From: Mycobacterium sp. PO1
GTDB taxonomy: Bacteria; Actinomycetota; Actinomycetes; Mycobacteriales; Mycobacteriaceae
Assembly: GCF_017312405.1 (NCBI RefSeq)
Contig: NZ_BLTG01000008.1
Span: 1-63,864, forward strand
Direction: 5' to 3'
Length of the DNA: 63,864 nucleotides
Shown here: one piece after another, positions 9,024 through 61,224 of the stretch
How positions within the stretch are numbered: the stretch's first letter is position 1
How the letters are laid out: each line of letters begins with the position of its first letter
Notes under the pieces: generated by a model
What the model was told of the DNA's origin: nothing
Seen by the model: only the letters and a program-made list of their open reading frames with translations
Databases searched by the model: none
Position numbers and translations under genes: made by a program

Positions 9024-9050
9024 TAGAACAGATATTGTACTGTTGTCACA
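9024..9050. promoter_or_regulatory. Operator site 1 of the island regulon
   Basis: The left arm is TAGAACA and, after 13 bp, the right arm is TGTCACA. The spacer also holds TGTACTG 5 bp after the left arm, forming a 7-5-7 palindrome. The site lies in the 178-bp gap between the divergent SDR genes 8118-8975 and 9154-9960 and probably controls both. Confidence 0.7.
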
Positions 9051-9153
9051 CGCCATAGGCTGGAGCTCAGCTCCGCCGCGGCCGTCAGTTTATTGCTGGA
9101 AGACGGTGGCATCGCGGATGAGTGTCACGGTGTCCAATCCCTAAGGAGGACCG

Positions 9154-9960
9154 ATGGTGCTGAGTCGGCAGTCGGTGGCGCTGGACGGGCGGGTGGCGGT
9201 GGTGACCGGCGGCGGCGCGGGCATCGGGCGGGCGATCGCGGAGGCTCTCTCGGAATTCGGCGCACGGGTGGCCATCTGGGAGCGGGACCCGGACACGGCG
9301 GCCAACGCCGCGGATGCCGTCGGCGGCTTCGCCTCCGTCACAGACGTCCGCGACGAAGCCCAGGTCGACGCCGCGCTGGAGGCGACAGTCCGAGCGCTGG
9401 GTACGCCGTCGATACTGGTCAACAACGCGGGCGGCGTGTTCTGGTCGGGGCTGTTGGAGACCTCGGTCAACGGTTGGGACGCCCTCCTCAGAGTCAACCT
9501 GAGCCAGGTACTGCTGTGCACCCAGCGCGTCGCCAGGCAGATGATCGCCGAGGGCCAGGCAGGCAACATCGTCAACATCACCACCATCGAAGGTGTGCGG
9601 GCGGCCCCCGGGTTCGCCGCCTATGCCGCCGCCAAGGCCGGTGTCCAGAACTTCACGAAGACGGCGGCACTCGAGTTGGCGCCGTACGGCATTCGGGTCA
9701 ATGGCCTGGCCCCGGATTTCACGCTGACCGACAGCCTCCGCAGAATGGCCCCGGCCGGGGTCGAGAACGCGAAACTGATGGTTCCGCTGGGGCGAGCGGG
9801 CCATGTCGACGAGATGGCCGGTGCGGCCGTGTTTCTCGCGAGCGAGATGAGTGCCTACGTCACCGGACAGACACTGCACGTCGACGGGGGGACGAGCGCG
9901 GCAGGCGGTTGGTATCACCACCCCGAGGACGGGCACTACGTGCTGGGCTACTCACCGTGA
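9154..9960 (+). CDS. SDR family oxidoreductase
   Basis: This 268-aa classical short-chain dehydrogenase/reductase has the NAD(P)-binding motif VVTGGGAGIGRAIAEAL, the NNAGG motif and the active-site pair in YAAAKAG. The serine position reads NITTIEG, so Thr takes the place of the usual Ser. A strong AAGGAGG lies 6 bp upstream of the ATG. The C-terminus has an extra Trp/His/Tyr-rich tail (GGWYHHPEDGHYVLGY), which may line the substrate pocket. It stands alone under operator 9024-9050 and probably oxidises a hydroxyl group of the pathway substrate. Confidence 0.85.
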   Translation: MVLSRQSVALDGRVAVVTGGGAGIGRAIAEALSEFGARVAIWERDPDTAANAADAVGGFASVTDVRDEAQVDAALEATVRALGTPSILVNNAGGVFWSGLLETSVNGWDALLRVNLSQVLLCTQRVARQMIAEGQAGNIVNITTIEGVRAAPGFAAYAAAKAGVQNFTKTAALELAPYGIRVNGLAPDFTLTDSLRRMAPAGVENAKLMVPLGRAGHVDEMAGAAVFLASEMSAYVTGQTLHVDGGTSAAGGWYHHPEDGHYVLGYSP

Positions 9961-10047
9961 CCTCGCGAGCGGCGACCCGCGCCATGGCGAGCGGCGACCC
10001 GCGACATTGCGGACGACATAGCGACAGCGGGCCCTGGGTGCCAGTAG

Positions 10048-11346
10048 CTACATCACCGTACTGCTGTCGTGTCCCATCGCCGCGGGGTCACGCTGGAATT
10101 GGCGCACCATCGCCTGCACGGTGTAGGAGGCAGCGAGATGGCCATCTCGGGTGTACACCCGTCCCTCACCCTGCACCAGGCCGCGCCCGGACCAGAACGC
10201 ACGGTTGGCGTACAGCAGCCAGTCGGTGACGTCCACATCGTCGTGAAAGGCGATGGTGGCCTTCATGATCCCGGTAGACAGCGTCCGGTGTGCCATCGCT
10301 TCGCCGAAGCCGGGGTGTGGCAGCATTCCGGCCGCGATCGTCCAGTGGGTGGTCGATTGCGCCAGCAGAGCCTGGTGCAGGTAACGGGGGCCAGGATCGT
10401 CCCGAAAGCGGGCCCAGGCGTTGATCATCGGCGGTCCCACGCGAGCCGGATCCGGATCGTAGGCACCGTCGACGATGCGGAGCTCGCGTCCCGTCATGCT
10501 GAAACCGGCGAACGGGCTCGCCGCGTCGGGACCGGGAACCTCGGGCATGGGCTCGACGTCACGGATGACGTCGGACGCCCCCGAGTCGGCCAGGAGCAGG
10601 CCGATGCACCGCAGACTGTCGTGCTGGCTGATGCGCACCTCGGTCGTGGAGAAGGTCCGTCCGCGCCGCACGACGTCGACGGCCACGTCGACGGGCGCGG
10701 TGAACGACGCCGCCTTGGTGAAGATCATCGACGCCGACGTGACCCGTTGATCGGAAAGCTCCTTGGAGGTGGCCACGATGGCCTGTGCGGCGAACTGGCC
10801 GCCTTCGACCACGTCGCGTTGCGTCGGACCGTGTGCTGGACCGACGAACCGGGAGGGGCCGGATGCTTCGACGTCGATGAGTCGTCGCAACTCGGCGGCG
10901 TCACCCCAGAGCGGAAACTGCGCCGGGACCGCGGACCCGTCAGGCCAGTGCTCCACGACGACCACACGCACGTCGGTGTCGTAGAAGCAGACATGGCCTC
11001 GGAGGTCGCCGACCTCGGTGAGCGGATCCCGGTACGTCCACATCACGTCTCGACCCGCGGCGTCGGTATCGCGGAGGCTCCAATAGGTGGCCACACCCTT
11101 GAACGGGCACACCGTGGTGTGATCGGAGTCGACGAAATGCTCCCAGCGAACGCCTGATTCGGGAAAATAGAGTCTGTCGACGTGATCGGTCTCGGTCACG
11201 ACGAGGCAGTGGTCACTCTCGGCGACCAGCACATCACCGACCCATGCCTGCCCGGTCATCGCACACGCACGGATGTCGATGCGGTAGTCGGGGAATGCGG
11301 GCCACGCCGACTCAACCTGTGTCATGTGTTCTCGGTTCCCGTCCAT
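10048..11346 (-). CDS. DUF427 domain fused to TesB-like double-hotdog thioesterase
   Basis: This 432-aa two-domain protein has an N-terminal DUF427 fold (about residues 20-140), recognisable by TVCPFKGVATYWSL. The C-terminal half (about 170-430) is an acyl-CoA thioesterase II-like double hotdog with GGQFAAQAIVAT and HTLSTG-type segments. The likely activity is hydrolysis of a pathway acyl-CoA, and the DUF427 part may bind or position the acyl group. It is the last gene of the six-gene minus-strand operon that starts at 16373. The start is ATG 11346; ATG 11325 is an alternative. Confidence 0.75.
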   Translation of the reverse strand: MDGNREHMTQVESAWPAFPDYRIDIRACAMTGQAWVGDVLVAESDHCLVVTETDHVDRLYFPESGVRWEHFVDSDHTTVCPFKGVATYWSLRDTDAAGRDVMWTYRDPLTEVGDLRGHVCFYDTDVRVVVVEHWPDGSAVPAQFPLWGDAAELRRLIDVEASGPSRFVGPAHGPTQRDVVEGGQFAAQAIVATSKELSDQRVTSASMIFTKAASFTAPVDVAVDVVRRGRTFSTTEVRISQHDSLRCIGLLLADSGASDVIRDVEPMPEVPGPDAASPFAGFSMTGRELRIVDGAYDPDPARVGPPMINAWARFRDDPGPRYLHQALLAQSTTHWTIAAGMLPHPGFGEAMAHRTLSTGIMKATIAFHDDVDVTDWLLYANRAFWSGRGLVQGEGRVYTRDGHLAASYTVQAMVRQFQRDPAAMGHDSSTVM

Positions 11347-11352
11347 GTGAAT

Positions 11353-12342
11353 TCAGCCGAGTCGCCCGATGCGACGGAGCCACGAGACCAGTGTGCGCAG
11401 GGCGTCAGCGCGCCGCGTCGGCGTGTAACCGATCGCGCGTTCGGTCTTCGAGACGACCGGACGGGCGGGGTGGGGTTCGGTGACGATCTTGCGTGCCACC
11501 GCGACCAGCGTGGGTCCGTAGCGCGTGGTGAGGGCGGCCTGATCGCCGAGTGGGTCGACGTCGAGCACCCGGTGCCCGAACCCCGCGATGGCGATCGCTT
11601 CGTTGCACAGCGACGCCATGCTGGTGCGGTCGTCGGGATGCCCGAGAAACCAGTAGCGCGAACCGGCGCTGCCACGATCGAGGGCCGCCAGGGCTCCTCG
11701 TGCCACGTCGTCACCGGTGACCCAGCTGACCGGGTAGCCCAGCGACTCGGTCAACCGTCCGCGCAGGCCGGCGAGGATCACGCGGTTGAACGTCGTGCGT
11801 GCCAGCGCCCGTTCCGGAACCGGGCTCTCGCCGTAGATCGCGCCGGGGTGGCACGTCAGGGCGTCCAGGCCGGCGGCTGCGCGACGGTGGACCTCCTGAT
11901 ACGCAGCCAACTTGGTCAGGGTGTACGGATCGTCGGGAGGGGAGTCCAGCAGGGGAGCGTCTTCGAGATCAGGACAGGCCGCCATGTCGAGGAACGACCC
12001 GGTGCTGAATGCGACCACGCGGCGCAGGCCGACGGTTTCGGCGGCGTCGAGCACGTTTCGGGTGCCCTCGACATTGACGGCCTGAAAGGCGGCGCAGTCC
12101 TGGCTTTCGCCGCCGAGGAGTGCGGCAGTGTGGATCACCGCGTCCGCCCCCCGCGAGGCCGCGAGCACCGACGCCGCGTCGGTGACGTCACCGGCGACGA
12201 GTTCCGCCCCGACGGCGGCCAAGGCCTGCGCGGTCGAGGGGTTGCGCACCAGCGCGCGGGGCCGGTCGCCGCGCTCGGCAAGCTGTCGGCACACGTTGGA
12301 ACCGGTCAAACCAGTTGCCCCGGTGACGAGTACGACGGCCAC
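11353..12342 (-). CDS. NAD-dependent epimerase/dehydratase (extended SDR)
   Basis: This 329-aa extended SDR has VVLVTGATGLTGSNVCRQLA at the N-terminus (the GxxGxxG NAD site) and an active-site Tyr/Lys in YTLTKLAAY. Middle regions such as NVEGTRNVLDAA are typical of 3-beta-hydroxysteroid-dehydrogenase/epimerase-like proteins. It probably acts on a hydroxy or keto intermediate rather than a nucleotide sugar, given its place in the operon behind an acyl-CoA ligase. Gaps to its neighbours are 6 and 8 bp. Confidence 0.8.
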   Translation of the reverse strand: MAVVLVTGATGLTGSNVCRQLAERGDRPRALVRNPSTAQALAAVGAELVAGDVTDAASVLAASRGADAVIHTAALLGGESQDCAAFQAVNVEGTRNVLDAAETVGLRRVVAFSTGSFLDMAACPDLEDAPLLDSPPDDPYTLTKLAAYQEVHRRAAAGLDALTCHPGAIYGESPVPERALARTTFNRVILAGLRGRLTESLGYPVSWVTGDDVARGALAALDRGSAGSRYWFLGHPDDRTSMASLCNEAIAIAGFGHRVLDVDPLGDQAALTTRYGPTLVAVARKIVTEPHPARPVVSKTERAIGYTPTRRADALRTLVSWLRRIGRLG

Positions 12343-12350
12343 GGTGAATC

Positions 12351-12653
12351 CTAATCGCTGGCCGGGAGGGGTTTTGCCTCCTTGACCTGTAGCGGCGTCG
12401 AACCGATGGACAGCGTGCCCTTACCCGCCTTGGTGACGAGTATCTCGGAGCCGTCGGCGTCTACGTAGCGCTTGCCCATCAACGTGCCGCCCGCATAGTC
12501 CTCGTCCAGGCGGAGGCCGGCGTCAGGGGTGGCGTCCAGGGCGATCATCGGCGCGCCGCCGGCGCGCAGATCGTCCAGCGCATCGGAGGTGCGTACGACG
12601 ATCACCTGGGTGTCGCAGACTTGGCTCTGCAAGCGGGTGCCGTTCTTGATCAT
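12351..12653 (-). CDS. Small conserved-looking protein of unknown function, coupled to FadD
   Basis: This 100-aa soluble protein starts MIKNGTRLQSQVCDTQVIVV. It is mostly beta-strand-like, with one Cys, and ends in a charged tail. Its ATG overlaps the FadD stop codon (ATGA), so the two are co-translated. I do not recognise a named domain. Similar small proteins sit beside acyl-CoA ligases in mycobacterial lipid clusters, which hints at an accessory role for the ligase. That link is inferred only from position. Confidence 0.7.
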   Translation of the reverse strand: MIKNGTRLQSQVCDTQVIVVRTSDALDDLRAGGAPMIALDATPDAGLRLDEDYAGGTLMGKRYVDADGSEILVTKAGKGTLSIGSTPLQVKEAKPLPASD

Positions 12654-14155
12654 GCCGACTCCTTGACGCTGAGTTGCTCGACGAGTTCGCGGCGCAGCAC
12701 CTTGCCGGTCGCGTTGCTGGGTAGCTCGGTGCGGAACACGACCTTGTCGGGGGTGCGCGAGCCGCGCAGTTGCGCACGCACGAACGCGCGCAGATCCTCG
12801 ACGCCGGGTGAGGGACCCGGTGCGGGAACCACGACCGCGACGACGATCTGGCCCCACTGCGCGTCCTCGACGCCCACGACGGCGCAGTCGCGCACCTGGG
12901 GGTGCTCGACCAGGACGTCCTCGATCTCGGCGGGAGCGATGTTCTCCCCGCCCCGGATGATGGTGTCGTCCGAACGGCCGCCGATGAACAGGTATCCGTC
13001 TGCGTCGAGATAGGCGATGTCTTTGGTGGGGAACCAGCCGTCGGCGTCGAGTACGGAGCCGATGCCCGTGTAACGCCCCGAGACCTGCTCGCCGCGCACG
13101 TAGAGTTCCCCGGGTTCGTCGGGCCCCAGGACGGTGCCGTTGTCGGCGCGGATCTGCACCTCGACAGACGGCACCGGCCGGCCGACCGAGCCGAGCCGCC
13201 GCGCGACCATCGGGTCGTCGGAGCCGAACGCGTCGCGATGATCCTCAGGCCCCAGCACCGCGATGGTCGACGACGTCTCGGTCAGGCCGTAGGCGTTGAC
13301 GAAACCCGCCTGCGGCAGCGACTCGAGAGCCTTGCGGACAAGGGGGAGAGCGACTTTGGACCCTCCGTAGGCCAGCGTGCGAAGTGTCGGCAGCGTGGTC
13401 GAGCTGTTCTGCAGCGCATCGACGATACGGTCGAGCATGGTGGGGACGACGGTCGCCGACGTGACGCGCTCGGTGTCGACCAGGCGGACCCACTCCGCAG
13501 CGTCGAAGGCCGTGAGGTAAACGATCTTGCGGCCGGCATAGAGATTGGACAGCGCGGCCGACACCCCGGCGATGTGGTAGGGCGGCACACAGATCAGCGC
13601 TGCGTCACCTGGCTGGGCGGAGTCGAACTCGACCGTGCCCATGATGTAGCTGGTCAGGTTGTTGTGCGTCAACTCAACCGCTTTGGGCGCCGAGGTGGTG
13701 CCCGAGGTGAACAGCACCACCGCAACCGCATCGGGATCGGCGGACACCGAAGCCGACTCGGTGGTGCGCGCCGCGGCGAGGAAGTCTGCTGCGGACATGA
13801 CGTGCTTGCCGACGTCACCGACGGCGTCGAGGTACTCGTCGTCGGCGATCACGAGCGGTTCCGGCAGGCGTCTGATCAGGGTGCGCAGGCCGTCGGCCGA
13901 CAGGCGGTAGTTCAGCGGCGTGACCGGAACAGCTGCCCCTGCAGAGGCGAACAGCAGCAGCGGCAGCATCGGCCCGCCGGCGCCGACGTATGCCACGTGC
14001 GACGCCCCGGCTGCGGCGATGACGCCAGAACCACCGTCGGCGAGCGTGTTCAATTCCTCGACGGACCAGCGCAGTTCGCCCGACACCACCGCGGCATCCC
14101 CGTGGATCGCCAGCGACGAGCCCTGCGCCATCTCCAACAGCAACGAGATGCTCAT
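12650..14155 (-). CDS. Acyl-CoA synthetase (FadD family)
   Basis: This 501-aa ANL-family adenylate-forming enzyme has the P-loop motif VLFTSGTTSAPKAVELTH at about residue 150 and the YGLTETSS motif. The aspartate of the hinge (IGGRSDDTIIRGGENI) and the C-terminal catalytic Lys (SNATGKVLRREL) are present. It would activate a carboxylic acid with ATP and CoA. ATG 14155 overlaps the upstream SDR stop by 4 nt. The genes before it in the operon (aldehyde dehydrogenase, SDR) make acids, so this is the natural next step. Confidence 0.9.
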   Translation of the reverse strand: MSISLLLEMAQGSSLAIHGDAAVVSGELRWSVEELNTLADGGSGVIAAAGASHVAYVGAGGPMLPLLLFASAGAAVPVTPLNYRLSADGLRTLIRRLPEPLVIADDEYLDAVGDVGKHVMSAADFLAAARTTESASVSADPDAVAVVLFTSGTTSAPKAVELTHNNLTSYIMGTVEFDSAQPGDAALICVPPYHIAGVSAALSNLYAGRKIVYLTAFDAAEWVRLVDTERVTSATVVPTMLDRIVDALQNSSTTLPTLRTLAYGGSKVALPLVRKALESLPQAGFVNAYGLTETSSTIAVLGPEDHRDAFGSDDPMVARRLGSVGRPVPSVEVQIRADNGTVLGPDEPGELYVRGEQVSGRYTGIGSVLDADGWFPTKDIAYLDADGYLFIGGRSDDTIIRGGENIAPAEIEDVLVEHPQVRDCAVVGVEDAQWGQIVVAVVVPAPGPSPGVEDLRAFVRAQLRGSRTPDKVVFRTELPSNATGKVLRRELVEQLSVKESA

Positions 14156-14907
14156 ACGGTCATCGGGGGAGCCGGGGACTTGAGAGTCACGTGGTCCAAT
14201 CCCACGTTCGGATTGTCCAGTGCGCTGGCGACGATCCCCGCCAGCACGTCGGCGACTCCCTCGGGAGTCATGTGTGTCGCGGGAACCAGACCTCGCGAAA
14301 TCCACTCGCCCGCAACGACCCCGAGAAGGTCGGGATCGAAGTCGGAGATGAAGTCCGTCGGCACGGTTGCTCCGACCTCGACGCAGCTGAACCGGTAGCC
14401 AGGGTGCTCCAGCCGCCAGGCCACCAGGCTGCGTTCCATCGCCGCCTTGCTCGCGGAGTACGCACCGAGCGCCCGGTGGGGGTGGCGCACCGAGTCGGAC
14501 GACAGCACGGCCACCACTGCCGAGGGGGCCAGAACCGGCAGGTGAGCCTGGATGACCTGGTGCACCCCGATCACGTTCGTCGCCAGCACCTTCGTCCAGT
14601 CCTCGGCGTCGACGTCGGAGAATGCTTTGAGCGGCGCATAGCCGGCGCTGATCAGCAACAGATCGACTTCGCCGAGGGTGCTCGCCGCCGTTTCCCCGAT
14701 GCGCCTGCAATCGTCGGCATTGCGGATGTCAGCGGACACCGATGTCACCTGCGCGGCGTCGGCGAGAACTTCGGCGGGTAGCTCACGTCGCGCCACGACG
14801 ACGAGCCTCGCCCTATCCTCCAGCGCCTTCAGGGCGAATGCCCGGCCGATACCCGCCGAGCCGCCCACGACGACGACGCGCTTGCCCGCCAGCGATCGCT
14901 CCGTCAC
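14152..14907 (-). CDS. SDR family oxidoreductase
   Basis: This 251-aa SDR has VVVVGGSAGIGRAFALKALE as its cofactor motif. The catalytic Ser is in VLSSDS and the Tyr/Lys pair in AYSASKAAM. The usual NNAG is replaced by ISAGY. Translation starts at GTG 14907, which overlaps the aldehyde dehydrogenase stop (GTGA). It probably interconverts a keto and hydroxy group, or an alcohol and aldehyde, on the way to the aldehyde dehydrogenase. Confidence 0.85.
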   Translation of the reverse strand: MTERSLAGKRVVVVGGSAGIGRAFALKALEDRARLVVVARRELPAEVLADAAQVTSVSADIRNADDCRRIGETAASTLGEVDLLLISAGYAPLKAFSDVDAEDWTKVLATNVIGVHQVIQAHLPVLAPSAVVAVLSSDSVRHPHRALGAYSASKAAMERSLVAWRLEHPGYRFSCVEVGATVPTDFISDFDPDLLGVVAGEWISRGLVPATHMTPEGVADVLAGIVASALDNPNVGLDHVTLKSPAPPMTV

Positions 14908-16373
14908 CGGGCGCCCTCGGCGATCGACTTGGTCTCCAGATACTCCTCGAAGCCCGCCACACCCATCTCCCGTCCGATCCCGCTCTGTTTGTATCCCCCG
15001 AAGGGCACGTCGACCCCGTAGAACACGCCGCCGTTGACATTGACGGTGCCGGTGCGCATCCGGTTGGCGACGGCCCGCGCCCGCTCGTCCGATGCGCTCA
15101 CCACGGTGCCCGACAGCCCGTACCGCGAGTTGTTGGCGATCTGCACGGCGTGGTCGTCGCCGTCGTGCGGGATGACCACGAGCACCGGGCCGAAGATCTC
15201 GTCCTGTGCCACGGTCGAATCCGGGTCGACGTCGGCCAGCACAGTGGGTTCGACGTAGTACCCGGTGGGCAGGTGTGCGGGAATGCCGCCGCCGACGGCG
15301 ATCGTGGCGCCCTCCTCGACGCCCTTTTGGATGTAGCCGAGCACGCGTTGGCGCTGCTCTTCCCGGATCAACGGTCCCATCAGGACCGAGGAATCGGTGG
15401 GGTCGCCGTAAGGCCAGGTCTTCAGGGTTTCCGCGAGTGCGGCGATCCCGTCGCGATACTTGCTGCGCGGCAGCAGCAGCCGCGTGGTGTTGGCACAGCC
15501 CTGCCCCGCATGGGTGGTGGTGGCGAACGCCGCTGAGGTCACGACCGCGTCGATGTCGGCGTCGTCGAGTGCGACGAGTGCCGACTTGCCGCCGAGCTCC
15601 AGGAAGACCTTCTTGATGGTCGCCGCCGCAGCGGTCATGATTCGCGTACCCGTGGCGGTGGAGCCAGTGAACGAGATCATGTCGACCCGCGGGTCCTCGC
15701 ACAGCTGTTGGCCGACGGCATGACCGGCCGAGGTCACCACGTTGACCACGCCCGCGGGGATGTCGGTGTGCTCGGCGATCACCTGGCCGAGCAGAGTTGC
15801 CCCGTAAGGGGTGTCCGGGGCCGGCTTGAGGACGACCGTGTTGCCCGCGGCCAGCGCCGGCACGACCTTGGCGAGGTTGATCTGAACCGGATAGTTCCAC
15901 GGGGTGATCGCGCCGACCACACCGACGGGTTCCCGGCGCACCGTCCGGTGGGTTCTCATGCCGAAGGGTTCGGCGAACCCCAGGCTGGTCTCCCAGTGGT
16001 ACGTCTCGGCCAGGTCGGCGACCCAGGGCAACCCCGCCAGCGGAGCATCGAGCTGGGGGCCGTAGGTCAGCGCGACCGGACACCCGACTTCGGCCACCGT
16101 CGACGCCCTCAGCTCGTCGGCGTGCTTGGTCAGCGCCTCGTGCAGTTGCCTGATGCAGCGCACCCGGAAGGCGAGGTCATCGGCCCAGTCGGTGTGGTCG
16201 AACGCGTGCCGCGCCGCGGCGATCGCGCCGTCCATGTCGGTCGACGTTCCGTCGGCGGCCACGCCGATGACCTTTTCCGTCGCGGGATTGACGTTGTCAT
16301 ACGTCGCGCCGTCGGAGGCCGCGACGAGTCGCCCGTCGATCAGCATCCGTTCTTCGCGCCAGATCTCTGCCAT
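14904..16373 (-). CDS. Aldehyde dehydrogenase (NAD(P)-dependent)
   Basis: This 489-aa class 1/2-type aldehyde dehydrogenase has the TPWNYPVQ substrate/cofactor motif and the general-base Glu in FLELGGKSALV. The nucleophilic Cys is in THAGQGCANTTRLLLP, and the late motif is EIFGPVLVVIP. It oxidises an aldehyde to an acid that the downstream FadD could activate. I chose ATG 16373 because AGGAG stands at the right distance. It is the first gene of a six-gene minus-strand operon and lies 55 bp downstream of operator 16428-16454. Confidence 0.92.
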   Translation of the reverse strand: MAEIWREERMLIDGRLVAASDGATYDNVNPATEKVIGVAADGTSTDMDGAIAAARHAFDHTDWADDLAFRVRCIRQLHEALTKHADELRASTVAEVGCPVALTYGPQLDAPLAGLPWVADLAETYHWETSLGFAEPFGMRTHRTVRREPVGVVGAITPWNYPVQINLAKVVPALAAGNTVVLKPAPDTPYGATLLGQVIAEHTDIPAGVVNVVTSAGHAVGQQLCEDPRVDMISFTGSTATGTRIMTAAAATIKKVFLELGGKSALVALDDADIDAVVTSAAFATTTHAGQGCANTTRLLLPRSKYRDGIAALAETLKTWPYGDPTDSSVLMGPLIREEQRQRVLGYIQKGVEEGATIAVGGGIPAHLPTGYYVEPTVLADVDPDSTVAQDEIFGPVLVVIPHDGDDHAVQIANNSRYGLSGTVVSASDERARAVANRMRTGTVNVNGGVFYGVDVPFGGYKQSGIGREMGVAGFEEYLETKSIAEGAR

Positions 16374-16427
16374 CACCGCTCCTGAGTGCTGCACCCTGCC
16401 CACGCGGAGGTCGCGCGGTCAGCTTCA

Positions 16428-16454
16428 TAGAACAGTAGTACAGGAGTTGTACAG
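16428..16454. promoter_or_regulatory. Operator site 2
   Basis: The arms are TAGAACA and TGTACAG, 13 bp apart. A second left arm, TAGTACA, follows the first after 1 bp and pairs with TGTACAG at a 5-bp gap, so two overlapping palindromes are visible. TTGAACA follows directly. The site sits between the TetR gene stop (16481) and the aldehyde dehydrogenase operon, which it should control. Confidence 0.75.
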
Positions 16455-16480
16455 TTGAACAGAGGTGTGAAACGCTTCGT

Positions 16481-17092: not shown

Positions 17093-17242
17093 AACGCTCC
17101 TTGCCTGTTGGGAGGCCCGTTTGGGGGACCCGCGACTACCTCGCCAAATTGACAATCCTACGCGACGGCCCCCTGATCGGCGCGTGGGCGCAGCCGTGCG
17201 ACACGCCGCGACTGCGGGGCGCCACCACCGCTGACTAATCAG

Positions 17243-17269
17243 TAGAACACATTGCGCACTGTTGTTCTA
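17243..17269. promoter_or_regulatory. Operator site 3, perfect arms
   Basis: TAGAACA and TGTTCTA form a perfect inverted repeat with a 13-bp spacer, the best outer arms of all fifteen sites. It lies between the TetR gene (start 17092) and the divergent SDR (start 17327) and should control both, including autoregulation of the repressor. Confidence 0.82.
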
Positions 17270-17326
17270 TGTGGCACGTTGGCGTTCCGACGACGCACCC
17301 AATCACTGACACGCAGGAGGCCGAGC

Positions 17327-53276: not shown

Positions 53277-53296
53277 GGGGGCAGTCTATCATTCGA

Positions 53297-53323
53297 CTGA
53301 ACAATCGGACGAATAGTGACTAG
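53297..53323. promoter_or_regulatory. Operator site 12
   Basis: CTGAACA and TGACTAG are separated by 13 bp. TCGGACG inside is a weak second left arm. It lies 20 bp before the P450 start and 4 bp past the stop of the upstream glyoxalase-like gene, so it controls the P450 only. Confidence 0.6.
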
Positions 53324-53327
53324 TTGA

Positions 53328-55006: not shown

Positions 55007-56226
55007 ATCACACCTCGCTCGGCCCAGTCGGCCAGCGCCTGGGCGTCGTGACCCAGTAGCGTGCCCAGAATTTCGTCGTTGTGCTGACCCAACTTGGGTG
55101 CGCCGGCGTCGAGATGCCACGGGGTGGCGGAGAACGTCATCGGGATGCCCTCCACCCGTACCCTGCCGATATCCGGGTGGGTGACGCTGGGGAACAACCC
55201 CATTCGGGTGAGATCGGCATCGCCGTCGATGCGTTCGGCCGGACTCTTCACCACACTGGCGGGCACCCCGGCGGCGACGAGGTCGTCGGCGAGCGTGGGC
55301 GCATCGCGGGACGTGGTGGCAGCGCCGACGAGCGCGTCCAGTTCTGCGACAGACGTCAGGCGTTGCGGCAACGTGGCAAAGCGGTCGGCGGTCAGTGCCG
55401 GCTCATCCAGCACTTTGGCCAGCAGAGCGACCTCTCTGTCGTCGCGACAGGCGATCGCGATCCACCGGTCCTCGCCCGCGCACGGGTAGATGCCGTGTGG
55501 TGCGTACTCGTCGAAATCGGCGCGATTGCCCGAGGGCTGGGTCATGCGGCGGTTGACGGTCCAATCGAGGATCTCGGTCGGCAGCATCGCCATCCCGGCC
55601 GGAACCGTTGCCAGATCCACGTGCTGGCCCTCGCCAGTGCGTTCACGGTGGTGCAGTGCGGCCATGATGGCCACGGTCATGTAGAACGCGGACCCGTGGT
55701 CCATGTAGGAAAACCCCCAGCCCGCAGGTTCGGTGTCGGGCAGGCCGGAGGTATAGGTCAGCCCGCTGACGGCCTGCACGATCGGCCCCCACGTCTTGAA
55801 ATCGCGATAGGGGCCGCTGTGGCCGAACCCGCAGTTGGACACGTAGACGATGTCGGACTTGATGCGCTTCAGTTCTTCGTAGCCGAAGCCGCGGTTCTCC
55901 ATCACGCCTGCGGCGAAGTTCTCACAGACGACGTCGCTGATGGCGATGAGTTCGCGCAGCAGTTGCTTGCCCTCGTCGGTGCGCAGATTGATGGTCACGC
56001 CGTACTTGCCCGCATTGTGGTTGTTGAACCCGGCGCCGAGGTCGACGCCCCGGCGTTCGTCGACGTACGGTCCCACACCGCGCAACGCATCCCAGAGGCC
56101 ACGGCTGACCGGGTCTTCGACTCTGATGACCTGCGCACCGAACGCGGCCAGGATCTTGGTCGCTCCGGCACCCGCCAGCTGCCCACTGAGATCGCACACC
56201 CGGAGGTGGGACAACGCACCCGTCAC
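55003..56226 (-). CDS. Family III CoA-transferase (CaiB/BaiF)
   Basis: This 407-aa protein has LRVCDLSGQLAGAGATKILA, FGAQVIRVEDPVSRGLWDAL, NNHNAGKYGVTINLRTDEGK and the catalytic-Asp region GWGFSYMDHGSAFYMTVAIM. It transfers CoA between acids, which spares ATP. The start is a GTG at 56226, 19 bp from operator 56245-56271, with no clear ribosome-binding site. It opens the three-gene operon with a second CoA-transferase and the VOC protein. Confidence 0.88.
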   Translation of the reverse strand: MTGALSHLRVCDLSGQLAGAGATKILAAFGAQVIRVEDPVSRGLWDALRGVGPYVDERRGVDLGAGFNNHNAGKYGVTINLRTDEGKQLLRELIAISDVVCENFAAGVMENRGFGYEELKRIKSDIVYVSNCGFGHSGPYRDFKTWGPIVQAVSGLTYTSGLPDTEPAGWGFSYMDHGSAFYMTVAIMAALHHRERTGEGQHVDLATVPAGMAMLPTEILDWTVNRRMTQPSGNRADFDEYAPHGIYPCAGEDRWIAIACRDDREVALLAKVLDEPALTADRFATLPQRLTSVAELDALVGAATTSRDAPTLADDLVAAGVPASVVKSPAERIDGDADLTRMGLFPSVTHPDIGRVRVEGIPMTFSATPWHLDAGAPKLGQHNDEILGTLLGHDAQALADWAERGVI

Positions 56227-56244
56227 TCGGCAACCATATCGCAA

Positions 56245-56271
56245 ATAAACATTTTCTGTTCTACTGTACAG
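56245..56271. promoter_or_regulatory. Operator site 13
   Basis: ATAAACA and TGTACAG are 13 bp apart. The inner TGTTCTA pairs with the left arm at a 5-bp gap and is the best inner arm of all sites. It lies between the divergent CoA-transferase genes 55003-56226 and 56402-57622. Confidence 0.78.
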
Positions 56272-56401
56272 GCAGTAACCGGCTGGGATCGCGCCGGACC
56301 TGCGTGCTGAACCGCCGCGTCGACCGGTTGGGGATGGTTGTCTGCCGACACGGGAGTTGCCGGCCGGGCGCTTTCCTGCCGAGAGAAGGAGACTCGAATC
56401 C

Positions 56402-57622
56402 ATGAGCGGACCGATGTCCGGAGTGCGTGTGCTCGAGGTGGCGCAGTGGACGTTCGTGCCGGCTGCGGGCGCCGTGCTGGCGGACTGGGGGGCCGACGTC
56501 ATCAAGATCGAGCATCCCCAGACCGGGGACTCCCAGCGCGGACTACGCCAGCTCGGCCACATCACCGTCGACGGCGCGCGCAACCCGGTCATGGAGCATG
56601 CCAACCGCGGCAAACGTTCGGTGGCGCTGGACATGTCGACTCCGGACGGGCACGAACTGCTGATGGACATCGCGCGCACAAGCGACGTATTCCTGACCAA
56701 TTTCCTGCCGGACGCCCGCAAGAAGCTGCGCATCGACGTCGATGACCTGCGCGCCGTCAACCCCGACATCATCTACGCGCGCGGAAGCGCGTACGGACCA
56801 CTCGGCGACGATGCGGGCACGGGTGGATATGACATGACCGGGTTCTGGAGCCGTGCCGGGGGAGCGCTCGGATCCACGCCGTGTGACATGGACGGTGTTG
56901 TGCCGCAGCCAGGCCCGGCCTACGGCGATTCGATCGGAGGCATGACGATCGCCGGCGGGATATCCGCAGCCCTGTTCGAACGCGAGCGGACGGGCAATGC
57001 CCGGATCGTCGACATCTCGCTGCTGGGCGTGGGGGTCTGGGCATCCGGGGTGGCGATCAACGCGGCGCTCGTCAGCGGCGAACCGTGGCAGACGAATCCG
57101 GCCGGCGCCAATGTCACACCGAACAACCCGCTGGTCGGCTTCTACCGAACGGCCGACGGTCGCCATCTCGGGCTGTCGATGCTGCAGGGCTTCCGGTACT
57201 TCGCGGAATTCTGTCGCCGCGTCGGTGCCGCCGATCTCGCCGCCGACGAACGGTTCGCCAGCCACGCGTCGCTGACCGCCAACGCACCTGCCGCCATCGA
57301 GGTGCTGCAGGCCACGATCGCCGCCCACCCCCTCGAGCATTGGCGCGAAGCCCTCGAGGGGTTCGACGGCCAGTGGGCGCCGGTGCAGAACACCGCGGAG
57401 GTCGCCGCCGACCCTCAGGTCCGCGCGAACGGCAACATCGTCGCGGTGCAGCACGACGGAGACACCTACGATCTGGTGGCCAGCCCGGTGCTCTACGACG
57501 AAACTCCGCTGGCATTGGCTCCGATGCCCGAATTCGCTGCCCACACCGAAGAACTGATCCTGGAGCTGGGCGGCGATTGGGACCGTATCCTGGCGCTCAA
57601 GGAAAGCGGTGCGATCGCCTGA
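56402..57622 (+). CDS. Family III CoA-transferase (CaiB/BaiF)
   Basis: This 406-aa protein has VRVLEVAQWTFVPAAGAVLA, DWGADVIKIEHPQTGDSQRG and NRGKRSVALDMSTPDGHELL. The catalytic Asp is in GPAYGDSIGGMTIAGGISAA. All hallmarks of formyl-CoA-transferase-like enzymes are present. AAGGAG lies about 12 bp before ATG 56402. It is a single gene, divergent from the other CoA-transferases, and its 3' end runs into a 14-bp tandem repeat. Confidence 0.88.
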   Translation: MSGPMSGVRVLEVAQWTFVPAAGAVLADWGADVIKIEHPQTGDSQRGLRQLGHITVDGARNPVMEHANRGKRSVALDMSTPDGHELLMDIARTSDVFLTNFLPDARKKLRIDVDDLRAVNPDIIYARGSAYGPLGDDAGTGGYDMTGFWSRAGGALGSTPCDMDGVVPQPGPAYGDSIGGMTIAGGISAALFERERTGNARIVDISLLGVGVWASGVAINAALVSGEPWQTNPAGANVTPNNPLVGFYRTADGRHLGLSMLQGFRYFAEFCRRVGAADLAADERFASHASLTANAPAAIEVLQATIAAHPLEHWREALEGFDGQWAPVQNTAEVAADPQVRANGNIVAVQHDGDTYDLVASPVLYDETPLALAPMPEFAAHTEELILELGGDWDRILALKESGAIA

Positions 57623-57674
57623 TCACACCTGCCTGATCACACCTGCCTGATCTCACCTACCTGCTCTCACACGG
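57619..57674. repeat. Four tandem 14-bp repeats between convergent genes
   Basis: Two identical units of CTGATCACACCTGC (57619-57632, 57633-57646) are followed by two diverged copies (57647-57660, 57661-57674). The array covers the stop codon of the CoA-transferase gene and the last codons of the convergent thiolase-fold gene. It probably arose by slippage. It is not a clear terminator. Confidence 0.8.
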
Positions 57675-58785
57675 CAAGCACCGCGGCAGCACAGGAACCG
57701 CCGCCTCCCACCGCCTGCACCAGCCCGAGGCGCGGGTGACGAACCTGCCGCTCTGCGGCCTCACCGCGCAGTTGGACGACAATTTCGGCGGCTTGCGCCA
57801 GCCCCGTCGCGCCGATCGGGTGTCCGCGTGCGATGCAACCGCCGTCGGTATTCGTCGGCAGTGCACCGTCGTGGGCCAACCCGCCGGACTCGGCGAGCTT
57901 GACCACGTCGGACGAGCTCGCCAGCCCCATCGCAAGCAGCGCCGTGATCTCCTCGCTGGCGCACATGTCGTGCAGGGACACCACGTCGATGTCGGACACG
58001 TCGATGTCGGCGCTCGAATAAGCTTGTCTCGCAGTCTTGGTCAACTGTGAGGGCGGCCCGACGACGGGCCCGACCAGAGGCCACTGCGGATCGCTGGGCC
58101 AGCTGGTCTGCTCCACCGAGAGCACCGACACCGACCGCGGGCGCTGGTCCGCGGTGACGACGATCGCCGCTCCTCCGTCCACCGAGGCATGGCACATCAT
58201 CTTGGTCAGGGGTTCGGCCACCATGCGGGCGGACAGGACGTCATCGGTGGTGATCGCATTGTCGCTTCGGCGGGCCGCCAACGGATTCAACCGGGCCTGG
58301 TTGTGCGACTTCGCGGCAACAGCCGCGATCACCTCCGGACCGCAGCCTGCGTCGTGCAGCCAGCGTGCCGCCTCGATCGCGTAATGCGTCTGTGGCGGGA
58401 AGCGATCCCAGAATCCCACCGCCGCGGGCACGACACCGCCCGCCTCCAGCGCGGTGGTCTTTTCGTAGCCGATCGCCAACGCGGTACGGCAGCGCCCGGA
58501 CGCCACCGCCCATACCGCGTGACGCAACGCGACCAGGCCGCCGGCCGAAGCGCTCTCGGTCGCGGTGACGGGAACCCCGGTGCGGCCCAACTCCAGCGCT
58601 ACCCGCAGCCCGGTCTGTGGCGGCGCGAGCGCGGACGCGGTGAACACCTCACCGACTTCGTCGTAGGCGATCTCGGCGTCGGCGAGCGCTTTGCGGGCCG
58701 CGGCGATGCCGAGATCGGCCAGCGGTGTGTCGCCGTGTCTGCCGAACTCGGTGACCCCGACGCCGCTGAGGAAAGTCCCGGTCAC
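57667..58785 (-). CDS. Thiolase-fold protein lacking the nucleophilic Cys, probable aldolase
   Basis: This 372-aa thiolase-superfamily protein has SGVGVTEFGRHGDTPLADLG at the start. At the active site it reads ATESASAGGLVALRHA, where true thiolases have ENACSSG, so Cys is replaced by Ser. The late block GGCIARGHPIGATGLAQAAE is complete. It starts at GTG 58785, overlapping a small OB-fold gene (GTGA). By analogy with Ltp2-ChsH2 this pair may catalyse retro-aldol cleavage. It is the second such pair in the island. Confidence 0.85.
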   Translation of the reverse strand: MTGTFLSGVGVTEFGRHGDTPLADLGIAAARKALADAEIAYDEVGEVFTASALAPPQTGLRVALELGRTGVPVTATESASAGGLVALRHAVWAVASGRCRTALAIGYEKTTALEAGGVVPAAVGFWDRFPPQTHYAIEAARWLHDAGCGPEVIAAVAAKSHNQARLNPLAARRSDNAITTDDVLSARMVAEPLTKMMCHASVDGGAAIVVTADQRPRSVSVLSVEQTSWPSDPQWPLVGPVVGPPSQLTKTARQAYSSADIDVSDIDVVSLHDMCASEEITALLAMGLASSSDVVKLAESGGLAHDGALPTNTDGGCIARGHPIGATGLAQAAEIVVQLRGEAAERQVRHPRLGLVQAVGGGGSCAAAVLAV

Positions 58786-59021
58786 TGCTCGTCCGCCGAG
58801 AACATGTCGACAGCCTCATCGTCGAGTGTGCGTGTGACCAGGCGGCCGGGAGTGCCAGGTGTCGGCCGGGCGCCGTCCACGAGTACCTGCAGACGGCCCT
58901 CGCCGGTGTCCACCCAGGCCACGCTGTAACCGTCCGCACCGTACTGCGAGTACGGAGATTTCGCGGGTATGAAGGTCGATGACCATACTGTCGCGGGGCG
59001 ATCAGGGGACGATGTCGGCAT
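58782..59021 (-). CDS. Minimal OB-fold DUF35-like protein, thiolase partner
   Basis: This 79-aa protein matches only the OB-fold part of DUF35 proteins (YGADGYSVAWVDTGEGRLQV, then LVDGARPTPGTPGRLV). It has no zinc ribbon. Its stop overlaps the GTG of the Cys-less thiolase-fold gene, and its start overlaps the 3' end of the CoA-transferase gene by 20 bp. It is probably the stabilising partner of 57667-58785. The fold is inferred from pattern only. Confidence 0.72.
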   Translation of the reverse strand: MPTSSPDRPATVWSSTFIPAKSPYSQYGADGYSVAWVDTGEGRLQVLVDGARPTPGTPGRLVTRTLDDEAVDMFSADEQ

Positions 59022-61128
59022 GTGTGGTCCTCGTGCGGTCGGGATGTGAGCTGCCCAGGGCAGGTGGGGGTTTCAGCGGCACAGGGCCTTCGCCGGCGAA
59101 ACGCCACGGCAATCCGACCAGTCGGCCGGTGTCGAGGTCGGGGTCGGGGTGCGCGATCTCCGGGAAGAAGCCCCGCGCGGCCAGGTGGGGATCGCCCAGC
59201 AGTTCGTCGGCACGGCGCACGACTGCTGCTTCGATTCCGGCCCCCTGCAGTTTGAATGCCGCATCGTCGGCTCGGTTGGTGGCGACCAGTGCGGCGACGA
59301 ACTCTGCCTGCGCCTGCTCGCACTGATCACCGCGCAATTCGACGGCCACCCAACGATCGTCGCTGGCCCGGTGCACCGTGCGCACCACGGCGGCATTCGC
59401 CACCACATCATCGGTGGATGCGGCCGCCACGAACTCCGAGACCGTCGACGCGACGACCTCGGCCATGGACAGATCGACGACGGCGCCGGTCGATCGGCTC
59501 GGTCCCAGTGCCCACGCGGCGATCACGACAGCGCCGACGACCGACGACAGCGGATCGGCCAGCACTGTGCCGAGGCGGGCAGGTGCTCCGTCCACCGCGG
59601 TGCAGAGGGCTGCGAGGCCACCGTAGGCCTGGACATTGTTGGCATAGACGCGGTATCCGGCCAGCGGACCGTCACTACCGAAGCCGGACACCCGCAGCGT
59701 CAACCGTCCGTCTCCGGCCAGCGTGGCCGGGTCGACGGCGAGCCTGTGCAGGCGCGCGGACCCGACGTTCTCGATCAGCACATCCGAGGCGGCCAGGATC
59801 GCCGCGACCTCTTCGGCAGCGTTGGCCGGGTCGAGTAGCACGCTGCCCTTGGAGTGATTGGCCACCGCAAAGTAGGCACCGCGTTCCGGTCCGGCGACAC
59901 CGTCGGCGAACGGCCCGCTGCGCCGGTAGATGTCGAGTCGCTCAGGGTCCTCGAGACGCAACACGGACGCACCCATCGCCCCGAGCAGTGCACCCACGAT
60001 GGGGCCGGCCAGCACGTGGGTCAGTTCGGCGATGCGCAACCCGGTCAGGCCGGGACGGACCGGGGAGCCCGCAGCTCCCGGGCCGACGGTCCACGGAGGG
60101 CCCAGCACGGTCGCGTCGCGCCCCTCGAGTCGGGTGGCCACCAGCGACCCACGATGCGCCAGCTGGGGGGATGCGAGTAGCTCGGAGGGCTGATTGACCG
60201 GCGTGGACGGTACGCCGTTGGCCTGCAGCAGCGCTGCGCAATCCGCCTTGTGTCGGGCGGCGGTCCACTCGGTGACGTGGGTGTTGATGAGCTCGGCGTG
60301 CTCGATGCGCGCGGGCCGCTCGTCCAGACCCGCCGCCCAGGGCGGTTCGCCGAGCGCCGCACGCAGCCCCCGCCACTGATGGTTCTCCACCGCGGTGATC
60401 CGGACCAGACCGTCGCGGCAGGCGAACAACCCGGAGGGGGCCAGGTATCGGCCGCTTCCCGCGCGTCCCGGGCAGCGATACATCACGTGTGCGCACTCGG
60501 GCAGCGCGGCGGTGAAGACGACTGCCTCCTGGGCGGATACGTCGACGACGACCGGCCCGCCGGCCTGATTGCGCCGTTCCAGCCCGTGCAGCGCGGCGAG
60601 CGCGGCCACCGCGCCGACTGCCTTCGACGCGACGTAGCCGGGAGCAGGAACCGGCGTGCCGTCCCCGTCCTCGATGGTGGCCATGAGCCCGCCGCTGGCC
60701 TGGGCGACGATTTCGCCTCCCGGTCGGTGGCTGTGGGGTCCGTCGGCGCCGAACGGGGAGATCACGACGAGCACTGCGCCCTCGGCAGGTTCCGGCGCCG
60801 GGACCGCGCCGTCAGCGATGACGATGTCGACACCCTCGAGATCCGGCACGGACTGTGTGGTCACAGCGCGCTTCTGCCGGTCCAACACGAGGTCGACAGC
60901 AGCCTCCGGCCCCGATGCCGAGTCGATGGTCGGGCCCCAACGGTCCTGCCGGGGCCTCGGCGCCCGCATGACTTCAGCGCCGAGCGATGCGAGCAGCGCC
61001 GCGGCGGACGAGCCGGCCACGCCGTTGCCGAGGTCCAGAACGCGCACACCCGCCAGGAACCCGGAGGGCGGCGCGACGTCGGTCACCGTGGCGTCATCTC
61101 CTGCAATCGTCGGGAGGCGGTGGATCAT
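59002..61128 (-). CDS. Tandem-fused family III CoA-transferase
   Basis: This 708-aa protein consists of two CaiB/BaiF-type halves (about 25-355 and 360-690). The first half starts LAGVRVLDLGNGVAGSSAAA and the second LTGLRIAELTHVLAGPIVGA. The expected catalytic-Asp region is GTVLADPLSSVVGAVVIAAW in the second half. In the first half the same place reads APGYVASKAVGAVAAL without Asp. So only the second half looks active. ATG 61128 lies 5 bp from operator 61134-61160; GTG 61086 with AGGAG upstream is an alternative start. It heads an operon with the OB-fold and thiolase-fold genes. Confidence 0.85.
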   Translation of the reverse strand: MIHRLPTIAGDDATVTDVAPPSGFLAGVRVLDLGNGVAGSSAAALLASLGAEVMRAPRPRQDRWGPTIDSASGPEAAVDLVLDRQKRAVTTQSVPDLEGVDIVIADGAVPAPEPAEGAVLVVISPFGADGPHSHRPGGEIVAQASGGLMATIEDGDGTPVPAPGYVASKAVGAVAALAALHGLERRNQAGGPVVVDVSAQEAVVFTAALPECAHVMYRCPGRAGSGRYLAPSGLFACRDGLVRITAVENHQWRGLRAALGEPPWAAGLDERPARIEHAELINTHVTEWTAARHKADCAALLQANGVPSTPVNQPSELLASPQLAHRGSLVATRLEGRDATVLGPPWTVGPGAAGSPVRPGLTGLRIAELTHVLAGPIVGALLGAMGASVLRLEDPERLDIYRRSGPFADGVAGPERGAYFAVANHSKGSVLLDPANAAEEVAAILAASDVLIENVGSARLHRLAVDPATLAGDGRLTLRVSGFGSDGPLAGYRVYANNVQAYGGLAALCTAVDGAPARLGTVLADPLSSVVGAVVIAAWALGPSRSTGAVVDLSMAEVVASTVSEFVAAASTDDVVANAAVVRTVHRASDDRWVAVELRGDQCEQAQAEFVAALVATNRADDAAFKLQGAGIEAAVVRRADELLGDPHLAARGFFPEIAHPDPDLDTGRLVGLPWRFAGEGPVPLKPPPALGSSHPDRTRTTHADIVP

Positions 61129-61133
61129 GACAA

Positions 61134-61160
61134 TTGAACAGTATTCGTTCTGTTGTTGTC
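61134..61160. promoter_or_regulatory. Operator site 14
   Basis: TTGAACA and TGTTGTC are 13 bp apart, and the inner CGTTCTG gives a 7-5-7 palindrome. It lies directly at the start of the tandem CoA-transferase gene (61128) and upstream of the divergent P450 gene. Confidence 0.7.
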
Positions 61161-61197
61161 CATCCTGGGGACACGCCTTCGGAGCTCGGCTTCACAA

Positions 61198-61224
61198 CAT
61201 CACACCATGTGTCCTATTGTTCAA
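61198..61224. promoter_or_regulatory. Operator site 15
   Basis: CATCACA and TGTTCAA are 13 bp apart, with inner TGTCCTA. The right arm ends 2 bp before the P450 ATG at 61227. With site 14, 64 bp away centre to centre, this promoter region holds two operators. Confidence 0.6.

What the first reader, a model, noticed from the sequence alone, without database searches (positions are those of the whole stretch)
9024..61224. A 15-site, single-motif regulon spanning 52 kb
A 27-bp operator with 7-bp arms close to TAGAACA and TGTTCTA and a constant 13-bp spacer occurs at 9024, 16428, 17243, 22353, 24627, 29276, 37030, 40445, 41526, 47543, 50256, 53297, 56245, 61134 and 61198. Nearly every promoter gap of the catabolic island has one. 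I saw none in the carotenoid block or in the convergent gaps. The motif does not fit the KstR (TNNAACNNGTTNNA) or KstR2 patterns as I know them. This points to one undescribed regulon that binds the whole island together.
Basis: partly seen in the sequence, partly recalled or inferred. Interest (0 to 1): 0.93.

Follow-up and report, generated by a model that had tools for sequence, protein, structure and literature searches.

The report
Mycobacterial catabolic island's shared TetR operator
Fifteen copies of one 35-letter palindromic DNA site sit in front of the genes of a large mycobacterial degradation island, and a TetR protein encoded there is predicted to bind them and switch the whole pathway off until its (unknown, likely lipid-derived) substrate appears.

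Summary
The 15 sites are real, far beyond chance. PWM scores are 26.5-38.4; the next place in the window scores 14.3, the maximum in 400 kb of the same genome 15.7. A whole-genome pattern scan finds 18 places: 13 in the window, 3 on contig C76 carrying the rest of the island, 2 elsewhere. All 9 divergent gaps of the island carry a site. Of 148 genomes, the 21 others with the island's TetR (16481-17092) have a median of 17 hits, the 126 without it 3. In a complete relative 14 of 15 sites have counterparts. Sites stay with this TetR where the second TetR (23149) was not found, and at its duplicate, so it is the likely regulator. Binding, repression, ligand and substrate are untested. I read it as a KstR-like regulon; seven literature searches showed no report of it.

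The parts
9016..9050 (.). operator 1, divergent gap mycofactocin-coupled SDR (8118-) / SDR (9154+)
   Evidence: PWM 36.4, LOO 33.6; EM; counterpart upstream of the same SDR (8118-) in G136
16428..16462 (.). operator 2, upstream of the Rv0768-family aldehyde dehydrogenase operon, just downstream of tetR1
   Evidence: PWM 33.7, LOO 30.5; counterpart in G136
17235..17269 (.). operator 3, divergent gap tetR1 (16481-) / SDR (17327+); would give autoregulation
   Evidence: PWM 35.3, LOO 32.6; counterpart in G136
22353..22387 (.). operator 4, upstream of the enoyl-CoA hydratase operon (21560-)
   Evidence: PWM 35.9, LOO 33.2; counterpart in G136, score 22
24627..24661 (.). operator 5, divergent gap MaoC-like/TetR2/SDR operon (24602-) / LLM monooxygenase (24700+)
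   Evidence: PWM 28.0, LOO 24.4; counterpart in G136, score 23
29268..29302 (.). operator 6, upstream of the fused 2-oxoacid dehydrogenase E1 operon (29331+)
   Evidence: PWM 33.4, LOO 30.4; counterpart in G136
37022..37056 (.). operator 7, divergent gap enoyl-CoA hydratase (36155-) / P450 (37075+)
   Evidence: PWM 35.2, LOO 31.9; counterpart in G136
40437..40471 (.). operator 8, divergent gap APH-family protein (39097-) / F420-type LLM oxidoreductase (40516+)
   Evidence: PWM 29.0, LOO 24.8; the one site with no counterpart at PWM 18 or more in G136, where the gene order differs
41518..41552 (.). operator 9, upstream of the SDR operon (41663+)
   Evidence: PWM 36.6, LOO 32.0; counterpart in G136
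47535..47569 (.). operator 10, divergent gap amidohydrolase (46187-) / 64-aa ORF (47596+)
   Evidence: PWM 38.4, LOO 35.7; counterpart in G136
50248..50282 (.). operator 11, divergent gap acyl-CoA dehydrogenase pair (47798-, 48947-) / SDR (50296+)
   Evidence: PWM 37.1, LOO 34.4; counterpart in G136
53297..53331 (.). operator 12, upstream of P450 (52083-)
   Evidence: PWM 26.5, LOO 21.5, the weakest; counterpart in G136
56237..56271 (.). operator 13, divergent gap CaiB-type CoA-transferases (55003- / 56429+)
   Evidence: PWM 36.9, LOO 34.5; counterpart in G136
61126..61160 (.). operator 14, divergent gap two-domain CoA-transferase (59002-) / P450 (61227+), first of two
   Evidence: PWM 36.7, LOO 33.9; counterpart in G136
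61190..61224 (.). operator 15, second site in the same gap, next to the P450 start
   Evidence: PWM 32.9, not used to build the PWM; counterpart in G136
16481..17092 (-). TetR-family regulator (TetR1, 203 aa), proposed repressor of the regulon
   Evidence: Pfam TetR_N 50 bits; best NCBIfam match ScbR-type at 50.5 bits, below its cut-off of 150; co-occurrence with sites; sites near it where TetR2 was not found, and at its paralogue
23149..23772 (-). second TetR (TetR2, MftR-like), itself in the operon behind operator 5; not found in G089 and G148 and not in the second G039 cluster, which keep sites
   Evidence: TIGR03968 88.7 bits, below its cut-off of 224.9; TetR_C_14; no match in G089 and G148
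8118..62441 (.). catabolic island in the window: 54 predicted genes (SDRs, acyl-CoA ligases, acyl-CoA dehydrogenases, enoyl-CoA hydratases, CaiB-type CoA-transferases, thiolases, three P450s, LLM oxidoreductases)
   Evidence: composition-based gene calls (two spurious ORFs under 20 aa left out); NCBIfam/Pfam; not every gene need be controlled

Best explanation
The 15 sites are copies of a 35-bp palindromic operator that the island's own TetR protein (16481-17092) likely binds, probably as two interlocked dimers, and it would thereby repress its own gene and the catabolic operons until a pathway intermediate, predicted to be an acyl-CoA, releases it. Shown here: the sites; their four-half-site geometry (ACA-N5-ACA-N5-TGT-N5-TGT); their position 20-128 bp from the nearest predicted start codon; their concentration in the island; their conservation in relatives; and that they follow this TetR also where the second TetR was not found. 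Inferred: that this TetR binds them; that binding represses (12 of 15 operator centres lie within 60 bp of a predicted start codon, where a promoter would be covered; TetR proteins are mostly repressors, recalled); that two dimers sit on arms 1+3 and 2+4; that the ligand is a CoA thioester (the genes are CoA-dependent and the closest solved folds include FadR and AibR); and that the substrate is a hydrophobic, branched or alicyclic lipid taken up by an Mce system.
For: Sites. Genome-wide concentration, 16 of 18 hits in the window or on C76. De novo rediscovery in a relative's island. Conservation: counterparts of 14 of 15 in G136; at least one site in 39 of 39 TetR1 loci; a site within about 1.5 kb of tetR1 in 17 of 21 genus loci and in 0 of 8 paralogue loci (L006-L026, L027-L034; threshold 18, PWM without the two tetR1-flanking sites). 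Co-occurrence: 21 TetR1+ genomes (76-92% identity) with a median of 17 hits (3-23) against 126 others with a median of 3 (0-10), reversed-pattern control 1 against 2, not different. TetR1 rather than TetR2: (a) TetR2 was not found in G089 and G148. G089's only 0-mismatch hit lies 1.2 kb from tetR1; in G148 two of five hits lie 1.6 and 2.9 kb from tetR1, upstream of relatives (71% and 70%) of P450s 37075 and 61227, both of which have an operator in the window. (b) In G039, 18 of 21 hits fall into two clusters, 4 and 14, each with its own TetR1 homologue (83% and 69%), while that genome has one TetR2, in the larger cluster. tetR1 is flanked by operators on both sides in the window. Its recognition helix (VSRGTVYRYFEDR) is nearly constant among orthologues and differs in the 33-36% paralogues (VSRSTxYEYF). 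Pitch: the commonest spacing between like triplets is 8 (21 cases) and from ACR to YGT 16 (19 cases); 56 non-redundant sites show the same four triplets and little information outside 35 bp.
Against: No binding, expression or ligand data for this protein in what I read. G089 has only 3 hits in all (92% complete genome) and G148 5. Four of the 21 genus loci have no site near tetR1. Three of G039's 21 hits lie outside both clusters. Six TetR1-negative genomes have 8-10 hits. The genomes are related by descent and the island is inherited as a block, so p = 1.4e-12 overstates independence. Absence of TetR2 in G089 and G148 is an empty search, although the same query matched in 21 genomes. The two-dimer step is geometric: the invariant triplets of one proposed dimer are 16 bp apart, wider than the 32-38 A between recognition helices of DNA-bound TetR proteins (PMC11667970, passage) unless the bases read lie about 2 bp inward. 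Seven of 12 same-strand gaps of 40 bp or more have no site. The fold matches to FadR and AibR are weak (TM about 0.5-0.6; model pLDDT 81). The confidence given is for TetR1 as repressor through these sites; for the two-dimer step alone I would say about 0.6.
Confidence: 0.87

Rival explanations
1. The MftR-like TetR2 (23149-23772) is the regulator that binds the sites; TetR1 only travels along.
For: TetR2 lies in the island, sits in the operon behind operator 5, and is found in 20 of the 21 other TetR1+ genomes and in none of the 126 others at E<=1e-40.
Against: Sites persist near TetR1 in G089 and G148, where TetR2 was not found, and at a second TetR1 homologue's cluster in G039, whose single TetR2 lies elsewhere. 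The MftR operator core GGCA-N5-TGCC (PMC8728441, passage) matches 0 of 15 sites. TetR2 is less conserved (65-85%) than TetR1 (76-92%) in the same genomes.
Confidence: 0.06
2. A regulator encoded outside the island (a global factor) binds the sites.
For: Neither TetR has been tested. Another TetR locus (on C27) carries a site of similar shape that recurs in many genomes of the genus.
Against: TetR1-negative genomes of the same genus have few hits (median 3), so the binder would have to be gained and lost with the island; hits also cluster around a TetR1 duplicate.
Confidence: 0.04
3. The sites are activator sites or promoter elements rather than repressor operators.
For: No expression data; one TetR could activate some promoters, and operators 9 and 13 lie 128 and 175 bp from a + strand start.
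Against: A long approximate palindrome with four half-sites is not a promoter shape; the centre lies 20-46 bp from the nearest predicted start codon in 10 of the 15, where an activator would have little room; TetR proteins are mostly repressors (recalled).
Confidence: 0.08
4. One TetR dimer, not two, binds the inner arms; the outer arms are a weaker flank or minor-groove contacts.
For: The inner pair ACA-N5-TGT has a spacing comparable to that of tetO-like sites (recalled).
Against: Outer triplets are about as invariant as inner ones: outer C/G in 53 and 54 of 56, inner in 56 and 55 of 56 non-redundant sites.
Confidence: 0.3

Closest known systems
KstR / KstR2 regulons (cholesterol catabolism, mycobacteria)
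   Same: A TetR protein inside a catabolic island with palindromic sites in divergent gaps; acyl-CoA dehydrogenases, P450s and an MCE gene are in reach of the sites here, as recalled for KstR.
   Different: The operator is 35 bp with four half-sites, not 14 bp (AnCAAGnnCTTGnT for KstR2, PMC3068626 passage; TNNAACNNGTTNNA for KstR, recalled). Neither pattern occurs in any of the 15 sites. TetR1 scores 26.1 bits against the KstR family cut-off of 280.
MftR, mycofactocin regulator
   Same: TetR protein of mycobacteria with a 27-bp palindromic operator and acyl-CoA ligands (PMC8728441, passages); TetR2 is distantly MftR-like; a mycofactocin-coupled SDR is in the island.
   Different: Operator core GGCA-N5-TGCC is absent from the 15 sites.
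Mce3R (M. tuberculosis)
   Same: Closest solved chain to TetR1 by sequence, weakly (E 1.1e-10); regulates the mce3 operon and is tied to cholesterol metabolism (PMC11667970, abstract and passages).
   Different: Mce3R is a double TetR on asymmetric 25-bp sites (same passages); TetR1 is a single 203-aa TetR with a symmetric site.
Dimer-of-dimers TetR proteins (QacR, CprB)
   Same: Two dimers on one long palindrome (CprB: two dimers on opposite sides of a 22-bp site, PMC4150764 passage; QacR: tetramer on a 28-bp palindrome, PMC4482099 passage).
   Different: Here 35 bp with an 8-bp pitch; stoichiometry not measured.

Membership tests
TetR family (the regulator) | N-terminal TetR_N helix-turn-helix and all-helical fold | tested here: met
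   PF00440 50 bits over cut-off 24; helical model matching TetR proteins
TetR family (the regulator) | palindromic operator near its own gene | tested here: met
   operators at 16428 and 17235 flank tetR1; a site near tetR1 in 17 of 21 genus loci
TetR family (the regulator) | ligand-reversible DNA binding | not testable with these tools
   needs protein and DNA
KstR/KstR2 | 14-bp operator TNNAACNNGTTNNA (recalled) / AnCAAGnnCTTGnT (PMC3068626) | tested here: not met
   0 of 15 operators for either
KstR | NCBIfam KstR model above cut-off | tested here: not met
   26.1 bits, cut-off 280
MftR | operator core GGCA-N5-TGCC; model TIGR03968 above cut-off | tested here: not met
   0 of 15 operators; TetR1 31.7 and TetR2 88.7 bits against 224.9
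ScbR/ArpA (gamma-butyrolactone receptors) | NCBIfam ScbR model above cut-off | tested here: not met
   50.5 bits, cut-off 150
Mce3R | two TetR domains in one chain, asymmetric operator | tested here: not met
   203 aa, one TetR_N match; symmetric operator
dimer-of-dimers TetR operators | four subunits on one operator | tested here: inconclusive
   four about equally conserved half-sites; stoichiometry not testable here

The most novel reading that the evidence does not exclude
A patchily distributed, Mce-linked catabolic pathway of mycobacteria, comparable in size to cholesterol breakdown and so far unnamed, is run by a single TetR master repressor that reads a new operator geometry: four half-sites on an 8-bp lattice held by two interlocked dimers. 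The regulator duplicates and carries its operator code to satellite gene clusters.
Probability: 0.5. Interest if true: 0.68.

Novelty: new member of a known kind. Interest (0 to 1): 0.55.

Why it matters
It gives a sharp, testable operator code (35 bp; at least 19 strong sites in this genome, 15 in the window and 4 on C76) and a candidate regulator for a large uncharacterised pathway shared by many environmental and opportunistic mycobacteria. Because the operons share one site, a single gene deletion or one pull-down could turn on or mark out the whole pathway and so lead to its substrate. The 8-bp four-half-site lattice is also a clean case for how TetR dimers pack on DNA.

Tried and rejected
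KstR, KstR2 and MftR operators: patterns absent from the 15 sites. TetR2 as regulator: set aside on G089, G148 and the second G039 cluster. Substrate: P450, LLM and Rieske searches against solved structures gave only family-level matches (CYP125/CYP124/CYP130/vitamin D hydroxylase-like; luciferase-like; carnitine monooxygenase-like), so it stays open. Two look-alike sites in other genomes were followed and set aside: one at another TetR gene, one at a locus with an XRE-like regulator. A plasmid search with the tetR1 region found nothing. Literature: seven searches, including motif strings, showed no paper on this regulon; only open-licence PMC text is held, the motif logos of PMC4482099 are not in its text, and regulon databases were not available, so 'undescribed' is not proven.
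Full report
What was checked. NCBIfam and Pfam give a catabolic island: SDRs including a mycofactocin-coupled one, acyl-CoA ligases, acyl-CoA dehydrogenases, enoyl-CoA hydratases, thiolases, CaiB-type CoA-transferases, three P450s, two LLM oxidoreductases, a fused 2-oxoacid dehydrogenase E1, an Rv0768-family aldehyde dehydrogenase and two TetR regulators.

The motif. I ran an expectation-maximisation search, palindromic and not, at six widths, on 31 intergenic gaps without telling it the sites. A non-palindromic run at width 27 also took one place at 10042, at a convergent gap, where the PWM reaches only -0.1. A PWM from the 14 scores the 15 sites 26.5-38.4, including the fifteenth (61190), which was not used. 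The next place in the window is 14.3 and is a register shift of a real site; leave-one-out scores of the 14 are 21.5-35.7. Twenty control stretches of the same genome (400 kb) reach 15.7 at most.

Geometry. From the window, C76, the TetR1 loci and the G136, G039 and G148 stretches, 189 places score 18 or more, with some places counted twice where loci overlap. After dropping those too near a locus end and those 70% or more identical to one already kept, 56 remain. Four triplets ACA, ACA, TGT, TGT stand at positions 5, 13, 21 and 29. The pitch is 8 bp, the central C or G is present in 53-56 of 56, and there is little information outside 35 bp. These sites were found with a PWM seeded in the window, so the count is not fully independent. 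The de novo search in G136 is independent: 18 of 44 gaps filled, 17 of them also PWM sites, same consensus; a control run on 49 gaps of ordinary genome gave a different, GC-rich pattern. The orientation of the triplets allows two interlocked dimers on arms 1+3 and 2+4. It does not allow dimers on arms 1+2, which are direct repeats. A single inner dimer is possible but leaves the equal conservation of the outer arms unexplained. This is inference.

Placement. All 9 divergent gaps between 8976 and 61226 hold a site (one holds two); 5 of 12 same-strand gaps of 40 bp or more hold one; 0 of 4 convergent gaps of 40 bp or more do. Operator centres lie 20-128 bp from the nearest predicted start codon, median 42. 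The region left of the island, with the carotenoid block, has a best score of 9.5.

Whole genome. The pattern WCARYWDDACRNWWWNYGTHHWRYTGW at up to 3 mismatches recovers 13 of the 15 window sites. It finds 18 places in 5.83 Mb: 13 in the window, 3 on contig C76, 1 on C24 (inside a predicted gene) and 1 on C27 (beside another TetR gene). The reversed control finds 1. The PWM itself was run only on the window and on fetched stretches. C76 (9,214 bp) carries 4 PWM sites and further genes of the same kind: thiolase, Rieske oxygenase, SDR, enoyl-CoA hydratase, two acyl-CoA dehydrogenases and an MCE protein.

Relatives. In the complete genome G136 the island is largely syntenic. The 100 kb fetched hold 19 sites in 67 kb, 14 of the 15 window sites have a counterpart, and most C76 genes adjoin the right end of the window's gene order; the MCE relative lies at the other end. 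The missing one is operator 8, where gene order differs. In the named-species scan, 39 loci with a close TetR1 (M. iranicum, M. aurum, M. gordonae, M. asiaticum, M. shimoidei, Mycolicibacter nonchromogenicus and others; some genomes twice) each have at least one site at PWM 18 or more; the two distant hits, L119 and L120, have none. Close to the gene (about 1.5 kb), 17 of 21 genus loci have a site and 4 do not (L018-L021); of 8 paralogue loci none does.

Which regulator. Among 148 genus genomes (own included), 21 others have a TetR1 at 76-92% identity; 58 more have only paralogues (31-40%) at E<=1e-20. The 21 hold a median of 17 pattern sites (range 3-23) against 3 (0-10) in the other 126 (Mann-Whitney p = 1.4e-12; reversed control 1 against 2, p = 0.95). 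Shared descent makes this p-value optimistic. Six TetR1-negative genomes have 8-10 hits, and G089 has TetR1 but 3 hits. TetR2 co-occurs in 20 of the 21, so co-occurrence alone cannot separate the two. Three loci do. TetR2 was not found in G089 or G148 (M. asiaticum 1165133.8) at E<=1e-15; the tool warns that an empty answer is weak, but the same query matched in 21 genomes. G089's only 0-mismatch hit is 1.2 kb from tetR1. In G148 two of five hits lie 1.6 and 2.9 kb from tetR1, upstream of relatives of P450s 37075 (71%) and 61227 (70%), both behind operators in the window. In G039, 18 of 21 hits form two clusters, one with each TetR1 homologue (83% and 69%), and 3 lie elsewhere. The second cluster has 5 PWM sites with relatives of regulon genes (E1 fusion, enoyl-CoA hydratase, P450, Rieske oxygenase) behind most of them, and that genome's one TetR2 lies in the first cluster. 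The recognition helix is nearly constant in TetR1 orthologues and different in the 33-36% paralogues.

Mechanism. I commit to a TetR repressor with ligand release. Shown: sites, geometry, placement, conservation and linkage to TetR1. Inferred: binding, repression, two dimers and an acyl-CoA-type ligand. The ligand guess rests on the CoA-dependent gene content and on fold neighbours FadR and AibR; the model is of moderate confidence. Pathway substrate: P450 61227 is nearest to CYP125/CYP124 and vitamin D hydroxylase chains and P450 37075 to CYP130 and CYP125. With the MCE gene this suggests a hydrophobic terpenoid- or steroid-like compound, but it is a guess.

Known or new. KstR2 and MftR operators (PMC3068626, PMC8728441; passages seen) and the KstR operator (recalled) do not match. 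Mce3R's site is asymmetric (PMC11667970, passages). CprB shows two dimers on one palindrome (PMC4150764, passages). PMC4482099 and PMC5895659 were seen as passages; other papers only in search listings. I found no report of this regulon in seven searches, which cover open-licence papers only. I file it as a new member of a known kind, with a long and regular operator.

Noticed in passing
G000:C76 (locus L121, 1-9214): Small contig with four more operators and a Rieske oxygenase, thiolase, acyl-CoA dehydrogenase pair and an MCE protein; in G136 most of these genes adjoin the island's right end, while the MCE relative lies at the other end.
   Followed up: yes
L123:10007 (G000:C27:76611) and L155:5082: A site of similar shape (ACTGATTGACA-N5-TGTAATACTGT) recurs in many listed genomes of the genus and in two loci looked at lies beside another TetR gene (it looks like Rv2250c, a name recalled, not searched); hints that the 8-bp pitch is shared by other TetR proteins.
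   Followed up: partly
L151-L154: A palindrome close to ACGATAGGACAC...GTGTCCTATCGT lies upstream of what look like an aldolase-type and a DapA-type gene (judged by eye), with an XRE-like regulator next to it in three of the four loci and about 1 kb off in the fourth.
   Followed up: partly
G039:C1:510001-530000 (L129): Satellite cluster with its own TetR1 paralogue (69%), five operators and second copies of regulon genes (E1 fusion, enoyl-CoA hydratase, P450, Rieske oxygenase).
   Followed up: yes
L105 and G118:C150: Some genomes carry two TetR1 copies close together (71-82% identical to the window's).
   Followed up: no
window 62510-63861: Two MlaE/YrbE-type permease genes at the right end without an operator of this type in front of them in the window.
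   Followed up: no
window 1530-6665: Carotenoid block (CruF-like, CruG-like, CrtD/CrtI-like) with no operators, next to an IS481 transposase at 17-874.
   Followed up: no
window 44852-46141: HAMP plus adenylate/guanylate cyclase catalytic domain protein within the catabolic island; role unclear.
   Followed up: no
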